Source: Alcanivoracaceae bacterium
GTDB lineage: Bacteria; Pseudomonadota; Gammaproteobacteria; Pseudomonadales; Alcanivoracaceae
DNA length: 64,000 nt
Reading direction: 5' to 3'
NCBI GenBank assembly: GCA_002706085.1
Contig: PAJO01000062.1
Coordinates: 62,001 to 126,000, forward strand
Positions 58,809 to 60,279 of this stretch are shown one piece after another (position 1 is the stretch's first letter; every line of letters starts with the position of its first letter). The notes beneath the pieces were generated by a model. The model saw only the letters and a list, made by a program, of their open reading frames with translations. It did no database searches and was not told the DNA's origin. Position numbers and translations under genes: made by a program.

Positions 58809-58841
58809 AGCCCGGGACTGCGTCGCAGCCCGGGCTTTTTT
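58809..58841 (+). terminator. Rho-independent terminator after the haem peroxidase gene
   Basis: AGCCCGGG pairs with CCCGGGCT; the enclosed bases add CTG/CAG pairing, and six T residues follow. Confidence 0.92.
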
Positions 58842-58916
58842 GGGTTCACCGCGGATTAACGGGAATCGTCTACAGAAAAGCCCCTTCCGTAGGAGATTCT
58901 ATGTTGTCCATCCCTT

Positions 58917-59855
58917 TTATGAGGCTGGGCTAGATACGTAGTCGGAACGGTTCTTCATCAACGCGAAGGCAATACGGACCAGCTTGCGTGCGAGGATGAC
59001 CAGGGCCTGCGTTTTCGCCAGACCACGGTCGAGATACCCTTGGTAGACCCCCATCCAGCGGGCGCTTTTGCAGGCGGCCATGGCCGCACAGTACAGCAGT
59101 CTGCGGGTCTCTGAGTCGCCTTTCTTGGTCAGCTTGCGCTTGCCCGTTCTCGTGCCCGAGTCTTTGACATGGACATCCATTCCCAGGAAGGCCACGAAGG
59201 CATCGCTGTTGCGGAAGTCTCCTCGCAGGAAGGCCATGACCAAGGCGTAAGCCGTCAGATCGCCCACGCCTTCCAGCCCTTTGCACCGTTTCACCTGATC
59301 ACAGAGCCCTGCCTCTCTGACGGTGTTGCGAAGATGCTTCTGAATGAGTGTATCCAGGCTGTTGATCTGTGAAATCAACTTTGTCAGGTTCGCCTTGAGA
59401 ACCTTTTCGCCACTCAAGCTCTGCTGGATCATGGTTCGTGCCTTGATCAGCGCCGCGCGGCGGCGCAGCAGTGTCTGCAATGTTCGATACGCCTTGGGCG
59501 GCGGACTCCAACGGCGTAGATCCTCCTTCTCCCTCTGCAGATGGCGGGCGAGCAGCTGGGCATCAGAGGCGTCTGTTTTGGCTCGACCGCCTGTTCCCTT
59601 GCGGTAGCTGCTGAGCCGTGAAGCATCAATGACGTAAATGTGGTGCCCTTTGGCATGGGCCAACTCAATGACCGCCATGTGATAAGTCCCCGTGGCCTCA
59701 ATGGCGATCTCACAGGAGCATGGCAGGCTCTTTAGCCAGCGTTTGATGGCTTGGGGTGTATTCTCAATGGTGAGCGTCCTGCCCTGGAAATGAATGACCA
59801 ACTCGGCCTTGGCGACGTCGATGCCGACGATGGATCTTGCTACTTGCATTGCCAC
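58917..59855 (-). CDS. IS110-family transposase (DEDD recombinase)
   Basis: The 312-residue protein has the N-terminal DEDD domain (GIDVAKAEL with D13, IEATGTYHM with E53, KTDASDAQLLARHL with D95/D98) and the C-terminal transposase IS116/110/902 domain (CKGLEGVGDLTAYALV, FVAFLGMDVHVKDSG, KLTKKGDSETRRLL). It appears intact. The GTG start has AAGGGG seven bases upstream; an ATG at 59849 is also possible. In this family the protein acts with a bridge RNA to join element and target. Confidence 0.95.
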   Translation of the reverse strand: MAMQVARSIVGIDVAKAELVIHFQGRTLTIENTPQAIKRWLKSLPCSCEIAIEATGTYHMAVIELAHAKGHHIYVIDASRLSSYRKGTGGRAKTDASDAQLLARHLQREKEDLRRWSPPPKAYRTLQTLLRRRAALIKARTMIQQSLSGEKVLKANLTKLISQINSLDTLIQKHLRNTVREAGLCDQVKRCKGLEGVGDLTAYALVMAFLRGDFRNSDAFVAFLGMDVHVKDSGTRTGKRKLTKKGDSETRRLLYCAAMAACKSARWMGVYQGYLDRGLAKTQALVILARKLVRIAFALMKNRSDYVSSPAS

Positions 59856-59889
59856 TGAACTGCCCCTTGAGCTAGGTTACACATGCTTG

Positions 59890-60072
59890 TCGGGGCGCAC
59901 CTGAACGCTGGCTTGCTGGTATCGTCGGTCTGAGGTGCGACTCAGCCGATGGATTCTTTATCGGCGTATGAATAGGTGCGGGGTGGGGCCAAGTCTCCTA
60001 CCGTCTGTACCCTTAGGTCAGATGCGTCATTGGTCCCTCCACCCCGGCAAGTCCTGCATCGTTGCAGGAGGG
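59890..60072 (-). ncRNA. Candidate IS110 bridge RNA
   Basis: Reading the transposase strand, a 5' hairpin CCTGCA/TGCAGG (60068-60053) is followed by two stem-loops. In the first, GGGGTGG (60045-60039) pairs with CCACCCC (59986-59980), extended by CCAA/TTGG; it holds a two-sided internal loop below an apical CTG-CC/GG-CAG hairpin. In the second, GCACCT pairs with AGGTGC, ACGC with GCGT, and the apical stem is TCGGCTGAG/CTCAGACCGA. The first loop carries GACGC and GTAGGAG, matching both halves of the occupied target. The second carries AGAATC, matching the element's end. The size, near 180 nt, fits the 177 nt known for IS621. The fold was done by hand. Confidence 0.7.
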
Positions 60073-60088
60073 GCATTCAAACATACAA

Positions 60089-60279
60089 GCGTCGGTTATT
60101 CGCTCCGCTCACCCCTGCGGGCGTTCCTTCGCTGCGCTCGGTGGCGGCGCGATCCCAGACCAGGATCAAAAGCATTTTAATCACAGAGGGCAAAGGGTCC
60201 ACAGAGGAAGACGGTTTTCCTCTGTGGAAAATCATTCTTAACGACGAGGGTTATCGCGCCGCCAGCGACGCTCCTACGG
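60089..60279. repeat. REP-like element, long form, split by the IS110 insertion
   Basis: The sequence GCGTCGGTTATTCGCTCC ... GGTGGCGGCGCGAT is the continuation of CCGTAGGAG on the far side of the IS. The inverted right arm ATCGCGCCGCCAGCGACGCTCCTACGG ends at 60279. Its centre contains a separate perfect 12-bp hairpin, TCCACAGAGGAA/TTCCTCTGTGGA (60198-60228). Together with 60280-60445, this region holds no gene. Confidence 0.8.

What the first reader, a model, noticed from the sequence alone, without database searches (positions are those of the whole stretch)
59890..60072. A candidate bridge RNA whose target loop matches the site actually occupied
Upstream of the IS110 transposase, on its strand, a ~180-nt stretch folds by hand into a 5' hairpin and two stem-loops with two-sided internal loops. 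In the first loop the 5' side reads TGACGC and the 3' side CGGTAGGAG. The occupied target on that strand is CCGACG-CT-CCTACGG. The left guide shares GACGC with the target's left half, and the right guide is complementary to CTCCTAC, with 8 of 9 matches counting flanking bases. The second loop contains AGAATC, identical to the element's end (AGAATCT), and CAAG, complementary to the CTTG at the other junction. Order and position agree with bridge RNAs of IS110/IS621 elements. That family is known; this particular RNA and its REP specificity appear worth describing.
Basis: partly seen in the sequence, partly recalled or inferred. Interest (0 to 1): 0.85.

Follow-up and report, generated by a model that had tools for sequence, protein, structure and literature searches.

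The report
IS110 bridge RNA aimed at REPs
A small jumping DNA element in an Alcanivorax-type bacterium appears to carry a guide RNA that steers it into the genome's own short hairpin repeats; this is a well-supported new example of a mechanism already known from the E. coli element IS621, not a new mechanism.

Summary
An intact 1,196-bp IS110-group element (58894-60089, minus strand) lies in one arm of a REP doublet. Its left end encodes a bridge-RNA-like structure: 5' hairpin, target loop, donor loop; the letters claimed for both loops are present. Thirty-three elements (window included; transposases 39-100% identical to it) give the decisive test. Of 1,914 left-flank/RNA registers the best is the claimed left guide; of 1,566 right-flank registers the best five are the claimed right guide. 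Permuting guides and targets never reached the observed match in 100,000 trials. The fold has 20 of 38 pairs with compensatory changes (shuffles 7.8). In one related genome, two copies 97.8% identical over 996 nt carry different left guides and sit in correspondingly different sites. The target 11-mer occurs 95 times in the host genome, a reversed control once. Bridge RNAs, guide/target covariation, REP targeting and natural retargeting are already published, so this is a new member of a known kind. Expression and activity are untested; a covariance model of these RNAs does not detect IS621's RNA, and a conserved extra helix is unexplained.

The parts
58894..60089 (-). Whole IS110-group element (1,196 bp counting both CT core copies), minus strand: CTTGTATG...AGAATCT
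   Evidence: Same end strings in the 32 of 33 elements for which both ends were located
58917..59855 (-). DEDD/Ser IS110 recombinase (transposase), 312 aa, GTG start
   Evidence: Pfam PF01548+PF02371 above cut-off; NF033542 192.6 bits, cut-off 140; IS621 chain 8wt6 E 2e-22; DEDD/Ser motifs at D13, E53, D95, D98, S233
59891..60068 (-). Predicted bridge RNA: 5' hairpin + target-binding loop + donor-binding loop (true RNA ends unknown)
   Evidence: Alignment and covariation; model R1 covers 59891-60049 (the window is a member of the model)
60053..60068 (-). 5' hairpin CCTGCA-ACGA-TGCAGG
   Evidence: Fold and sequence
59980..60045 (-). Target-binding stem-loop (TBL)
   Evidence: Helices 1-3
60023..60029 (-). 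Left target guide (LTG) TGACGCA; matches left target CCGACG + core
   Evidence: Top register of 1,914
59995..60003 (-). Right target guide (RTG) CGGTAGGAG; complementary to CTCCTAC(G)G
   Evidence: Top register of 1,566; 8 of 9
59897..59979 (-). Donor-binding stem-loop (DBL)
   Evidence: Helices 4-6; helix ACGC/GCGT has 98.4% of cells paired and both-side changes in 3 of its 4 pairs
59952..59957 (-). Left donor guide AGAATC, same letters as the element's right end AGAATCT
   Evidence: GAATC invariant in 20 of 20 rows
59912..59915 (-). Right donor guide CAAG, complementary to the left end CTTG
   Evidence: CAAGC invariant in 20 of 20 rows
60088..60089 (-). Core dinucleotide CT at the left junction (second copy at 58894-58895)
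60090..60095 (-). Left half of occupied target, CCGACG (side of the REP stem arm)
58887..58893 (-). Right half of occupied target, CCTACGG (complement of the REP head CCGTAGG)
60253..60279 (+). Intact partner REP of the doublet, ATCGCGCCGCCAGCGACGCTCCTACGG
   Evidence: (G000:C62:122267)

Best explanation
This is an intact IS110-group insertion sequence whose left end encodes a bridge RNA. The recombinase would excise the element as a circle joined at a CT core. The transcribed leader folds into a target loop and a donor loop. [quoted passage not shown] The donor loop pairs with the joined element ends (AGAAT-CT-TGTATG). Strand exchange at the CT core puts the element into the foot of the REP. 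Shown here: element ends, target, conserved RNA fold, guide/target covariation, conserved catalytic motifs. Inferred from IS621: transcription, RNA-protein binding, circle formation, donor pairing and chemistry.
For: Recombinase family and catalytic motifs. The 32 elements with both ends located share CTTGTATG...AGAATCT and a CT core (ends were located by these strings). Unbiased scan: the best of 1,914 left-flank registers (z 8.6) is the predicted LTG with the core in register; the top five of 1,566 right-flank registers (z 5.6 to 4.4) are the predicted RTG, the sixth, elsewhere, has 4.2; wrong-sense scans peak at z 4.6 and 3.4. Permutation of 14 distinct guides: 0 of 100,000. RTG 7 of 7 in 27 of 32 elements, 6 of 7 in the other 5. 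Fold: 20 of 38 pairs with both-side changes against 7.8 in shuffles, 0 of 500. Target is a high-copy repeat, 95 sites against 1 for the control. No terminal inverted repeat.
Against: No transcript data. Left-guide match is imperfect in several elements: 23 of 33 match at least 4 of 5 non-core positions, 6 match 3, 3 match 2 (L014, L017, L009) and 1 matches none in register (L035) (L037/L038, counted with 3, fit better one column over). Model R1 gives no match to the three IS621-type loci at E up to 10. In one search one of five measures (further pair types, 33 against 29.7) is reached by 59 of 500 shuffles. The IS621-like junction promoter (-21 position) is not evident in the Alcanivorax clade: best score 9 of 12 at another position, reached by 138 of 5,000 shuffles.
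Confidence: 0.95

Rival explanations
1. The guide matches are chance: the recombinase itself recognises the REP hairpin and the leader is only an mRNA 5'-UTR.
For: RTG and its target hardly vary within the genus, so on their own they could be coincidence; some LTGs match poorly (L014, L017, L009, L035). [quoted passage not shown]).
Against: LTG and site change together: L022 vs L025 in one genome, 97.8% identical over 996 nt, CGACGCA at CCGACG against AGGTGCA at AGAGGTG; L037/L038 in one genome CCCTGG against CCTTGG in both guide and site; permutation 0 of 100,000; right guide also follows (CCCAC and CATCG sites).
Confidence: 0.02
2. The stretch is a bridge RNA but belongs to a decayed, inactive element: a single fossil copy in this genome.
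For: Only one copy in the host genome; LTG first base differs from the site (T against C).
Against: Open transposase with the catalytic motifs, exact ends, 161.5 bits to model R1 (the window is in the model); a near relative is multicopy (13 in G012).
Confidence: 0.15
3. The leader also regulates transposase translation (an ISPpu9-like structured 5'-UTR), with target guidance as one of two functions of the same RNA.
For: A 9-nt segment overlapping the TBL's 5' side pairs with a segment near the start codon, 89.4% of cells paired, covariation score 0 of 500 shuffles; the MFE fold pairs the RNA's 5' part with AGGGGCA just before the start.
Against: Columns 47/224 are unpaired in 10 of 20 rows; only 3 of 9 pairs have both-side changes, reached by 96 of 500 shuffles. 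IS621 has no such segment: its donor loop runs to the start codon. Not exclusive with guidance.
Confidence: 0.15

Closest known systems
IS621 of E. coli (bridge RNA, PMC11208160; structure PMC11208158)
   Same: DEDD+Ser recombinase; RNA in the long left end; 5' hairpin, TBL, DBL in that order (IS621 order from the papers); CT core; ends CTTGTAT...; GCAAG in the donor loop; inserts at the foot of a REP hairpin.
   Different: Recombinase only distantly related (phmmer E 2e-22); RNA not detected by model R1; different REP, and the core lies about 3 nt before the CTAC instead of inside it (by eye); longer right guide match (7 nt or more; IS621 natively 4); about 41 nt of leader between DBL and start codon, none in IS621; junction promoter not IS621-like in this clade.
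ISPpu10 and ISPpu9 of Pseudomonas putida
   Same: IS110 family, always in REPs (7 of 7 copies each; PMC1525189, passages); ISPpu10 is one of the elements drawn with predicted guides in PMC11208160 (legend); ISPpu9 has a structured 5'-UTR (PMC8450116, abstract and section 16).
   Different: Their sequences were not fetched here, so relatedness to this element was not measured.
seekRNA of ISEc21 (IS110 type) and ISEc11/ISXne4 (IS1111 type), PMC11187229
   Same: Non-coding RNA upstream of tnp in the IS110 type guides target choice; natural redirection by guide replacement reported for ISEc11/ISXne4 (passages).
   Different: Those elements have other targets; the mature ISEc21 RNA is 74 nt, so the mature length here is open.

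Membership tests
IS110 family, IS110 group (IS621-like) | DEDD RuvC-like domain plus Transposase_20 domain with conserved Ser | tested here: met
   motifs D13, E53, D95, D98, S233 aligned with IS621 (residue roles from PMC11208158; motif-to-residue assignment inferred)
IS110 family, IS110 group (IS621-like) | Long left non-coding end (upstream of tnp), short right end | tested here: met
   LE 234 nt, RE 23 nt, core included (coordinates)
IS110 family, IS110 group (IS621-like) | 2-bp core shared by target and ends; no terminal inverted repeats | tested here: met
   Core CT in the 32 elements with both ends located; none of 25 inverted-repeat pairs in the element joins its two ends
Bridge RNA | 5' hairpin then two stem-loops with internal loops, conserved by covariation | tested here: met
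   Two stem-loops. The 5' hairpin is not alignable across groups and is supported only by fold in the window
Bridge RNA | LTG pairs with bottom strand, RTG with top strand of the target, core in both | tested here: met
Bridge RNA | LDG/RDG pair with the element's own joined ends | tested here: inconclusive
   AGAATC and CAAG present and GAATC, CAAGC conserved, but the donor ends hardly vary (and were used to find the elements), so covariation cannot test it
Bridge RNA | Detectable homology to the IS621 RNA by covariance model (not a defining feature in print; my own test) | tested here: not met
   R1 finds nothing in L039-L041 at E up to 10; no Rfam family at gathering score
Bridge RNA | Transcribed from the RE-LE junction promoter | tested here: inconclusive
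   TGGACA-18-TTGAAT, 9 of 12, 138 of 5,000 shuffles reach 9; no RNA data
Bridge RNA | RNA binds recombinase and directs recombination | not testable with these tools
   Needs biochemistry
REP (RAYT-associated palindrome) as target | High-copy hairpin with GTAG head, often in inverted doublets, RAYT in genome | tested here: met
   95 sites, control 1; doublets; one copy folded, 6-bp hairpin; 7 Y1_Tnp matches, one at C34:112245 with such sites on both sides

The most novel reading that the evidence does not exclude
The two target guides divide the labour: the right guide is locked on the constant REP head, while the left guide follows the variable REP stem by small changes or exchange, so one lineage can retarget among REP classes inside a single genome. 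In addition, the leader may hold a second fold, exclusive with the target-loop stem (60051-60043 with 59894-59886, near the start codon), that switches the transcript between guide RNA and transposase mRNA.
Probability: 0.2. Interest if true: 0.5.

Novelty: new member of a known kind. Interest (0 to 1): 0.32.

Why it matters
It gives an independent confirmation that bridge-RNA guide/target logic holds in an Alcanivorax-type lineage far from IS621. It also supplies a natural series of elements (14 distinct left guides, two same-genome retargeting cases) with a 7-9-nt right guide, useful for choosing new programmable recombinases and for studying how guides change in nature.

Tried and rejected
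Rfam search of the window (none) and of the element at a relaxed threshold (four sub-threshold matches to unrelated families). Single-sequence folding mixes the bridge fold with long-range pairs and was not used as proof. RNAalifold on A1 found the TBL and much of the DBL, but not the DBL outer stem. Plasmid search with the window protein at E<=1e-40: no match. Phylum search: only the window's own genome of 398; family of G307: 2 of 7, both already known. Orthologous empty site: in nine fetched relatives the match to the joined flanks stops 54 to 113 bases before the junction, so no orthologous empty site could be shown; the empty-site evidence is paralogous (for example L052). The second left-guide class is not backed by an abundant exact site: AGGTGCTCCTAC occurs 3 times in G012 (control 1), 8 in G014, 4 in G008, 1 in G000, 0 in G018. 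In one search the RTG columns were off by one; RTG figures are taken. In one search, L037/L038 are counted one column out of register (against my reading). For A2/R1, 3 of the 20 distinct rows (L022, L024, L025) were left out; L015 has no right end (masked bases), so right-flank counts use 32 of 33 elements. L001-L006 are the window itself or second copies of loci already counted and were dropped. The second IS110-type gene of the genome (L043) was only searched with R1 (no match) and not studied.

Full report
What is there. On the minus strand, 58917-59855 encodes a 312-aa IS110 recombinase: Pfam PF01548 and PF02371 above cut-off, NCBIfam NF033542 'IS110 family RNA-guided transposase' 192.6 bits against a cut-off of 140, and solved relatives ISCro4 (E 1e-22) and IS621 (E 2e-22). 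The DEDD motif and the conserved serine described for IS621 (PMC11208158, passages) have counterparts at D13, E53, D95, D98 and S233 (assignment by motif, inferred). The element reads CCGACG | CTTGTATG ... AGAATCT | CCTACGG, 1,196 bp counting both CT copies. It is the only copy in its genome and has no terminal inverted repeat.

Target. With the element removed the site reads CCGTAGGAGCGTCGG... on the plus strand. The 11-mer GACGCTCCTAC occurs 95 times in the genome, against 1 for the reversed control. The four other stretches fetched show copies of the type C(C/T)GTAGGAGCGTCGC-T(G/C)-GCGGCGCGAT (one copy folded: a 6-bp hairpin) in inverted pairs, and many of the 95 lie in such pairs about 53 or 150-160 bp apart, with other spacings too. 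The element sits in one arm of such a doublet, in a variant with a longer loop; the same variant is occupied by 4 of the 13 G012 copies (L012, L020, L021, L022). The partner is intact at 60253-60279. Seven Y1_Tnp (RAYT-type) matches occur in the genome, and one (C34:112245-112478) has these sites on both sides. I therefore call the repeats REPs; that is inference from anatomy. The left half of the target lies on the stem-arm side, the right half is the complement of the constant head.

RNA. Homologues were collected from the genus (6 of 17 genomes), family (8 of 46) and class (8 of 369 at E<=1e-60), the window's own genome counted each time: 33 elements, 20 distinct left ends, transposases 39-100% identical to the window's. 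The 32 with a located right end have CTTGTATG...AGAATCT (L015 is cut by masked bases). The left ends align throughout. A structure of two stem-loops with internal loops has 90.6% of cells paired (shuffles 83.0) and 20 of 38 pairs with changes on both sides (shuffles 7.8), 0 of 500 shuffles reaching either; slid versions give 1-8 such pairs; one measure, further pair types, is reached by 59 of 500 (17 of the 20 rows, 16 distinct). On all 20 rows, 16 of 35 pairs have both-side changes (shuffles 6.6). Related sequences can exceed such shuffles without structure, so the slid control and the number of pairs matter most.

Guides against targets. Every register between the left flank plus core and the aligned left end was scored. 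The best of 1,914 is the predicted left guide with the core in register (z 8.6), the second best is the same register one base on (6.6), and the next is 3.5. For the right flank the top five of 1,566 are the predicted right guide (z 5.6 to 4.4); the sixth, elsewhere, has 4.2. Wrong-sense scans peak at 4.6 and 3.4. Over 14 distinct left guides the mean match is 3.5 of 5 non-core positions, 2.19 under permutation, and 0 of 100,000 permutations reach it. By element, 23 of 33 match at least 4 of 5, 6 match 3, 3 match 2, 1 matches 0. The right guide matches 7 of 7 in 27 of 32 and 6 of 7 in 5 of 32; of these 5, four place a guide G opposite a target T. Guides of the CCTAC-matching type (20 elements) are all at CCTAC sites; those of the CCCAC-matching type (10) are at CCCAC (6) or CCTAC (4) sites, as wobble pairing would allow.

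Natural retargeting. In G012, L022 (guide CGACGCA, site CCGACG-CT) and L025 (guide AGGTGCA, site AGAGGTG-CT) are 97.8% identical over 996 nt (974 of 996). In G085, L037 and L038 (866 of 996 identical) carry CCCTGG and CCTTGG both in the guide and at the site. These pairs argue against a mere phylogenetic correlation. Against: two of the nine L007-type copies (L014, L017) and L009 sit at sites matching only 2 of 5, L035 at 0 of 5 in register, and the exact AGGTG site is rare in G012 (3, control 1).

Donor loop. AGAATC (same letters as the right end) and CAAG (complement of CTTG) are present, and GAATC and CAAGC are invariant in 20 of 20 rows. Since the ends do not vary and were used to find the elements, this cannot be tested by covariation.

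How it most likely works. As in IS621 (PMC11208160, passages): excision to a circle joined at CT, transcription of the left end, RNA-recombinase complex, target loop on the REP, donor loop on the joined ends, strand exchange at CT. Only the anatomy and covariation are shown here; expression and chemistry are inferred. The promoter across the junction, found in IS621, is not clear in this clade (9 of 12 at another position, reached by 138 of 5,000 shuffles), while several distant relatives (for example L032, L037) have a TTG-17-TATGNT pattern at the IS621 position (without a chance control).

Comparison. Element ends, core, order of loops and REP targeting agree with IS621, whose sequence was read in L039-L041 (L040 is an 83% relative). 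Yet a covariance model of these RNAs finds nothing in these loci at E up to 10, so common descent of the two RNAs is inferred from position and function, not from the model. REP targeting by IS110-family elements is old knowledge (PMC1525189, passages). Guide/target covariation over thousands of elements is in PMC11208160; natural redirection is in PMC11187229 (passages). Searches for this element in print (listings only) showed no paper on an Alcanivorax IS110 bridge RNA; unlabelled inclusion in the large published data sets could not be checked, as supplements were closed.

Loose end. A segment at the 5' foot of the TBL (CTTGYCGGG, window 60051-60043) pairs with CCCGRCAAG (59894-59886) near the start codon: 89.4% of cells, covariation score above all 500 shuffles, but one pair is broken in 10 of 20 rows and the number of both-side pairs (3 of 9) is reached by 96 of 500 shuffles. 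It overlaps the TBL stem, so the two are exclusive. It may be a leader switch or a chance product of repeated C/G runs. Verdict: real, well supported, a new member of a known kind.

Noticed in passing
window 60051-60043 with 59894-59886 (minus strand): Conserved complementary segments (CTTGYCGGG / CCCGRCAAG) that exclude the TBL outer stem: possible alternative fold of the leader.
   Followed up: partly
window 60079-60069 with 59867-59856 (minus strand): In the single-sequence fold the RNA's 5' part (TGAATGCCCCT) pairs with AGGGGCAGTTCA just before the transposase start, which might hide a ribosome-binding site.
   Followed up: no
window 17013, 17140, 41574 and 60267: Further copies of the REP 11-mer GACGCTCCTAC in the window (the first two a doublet).
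   Followed up: partly
window 58831-58896: The flank next to the REP is itself part of a longer dispersed repeat (about 64 bp; 11 further partial matches in this genome).
   Followed up: partly
G000:C15:1796-2212 (L043): A second, different IS110-family transposase gene in the same genome; R1 finds no such RNA in its locus.
   Followed up: no
G000:C34:112031-112782: A Y1_Tnp (RAYT-type) gene flanked on both sides by the target REPs.
   Followed up: partly
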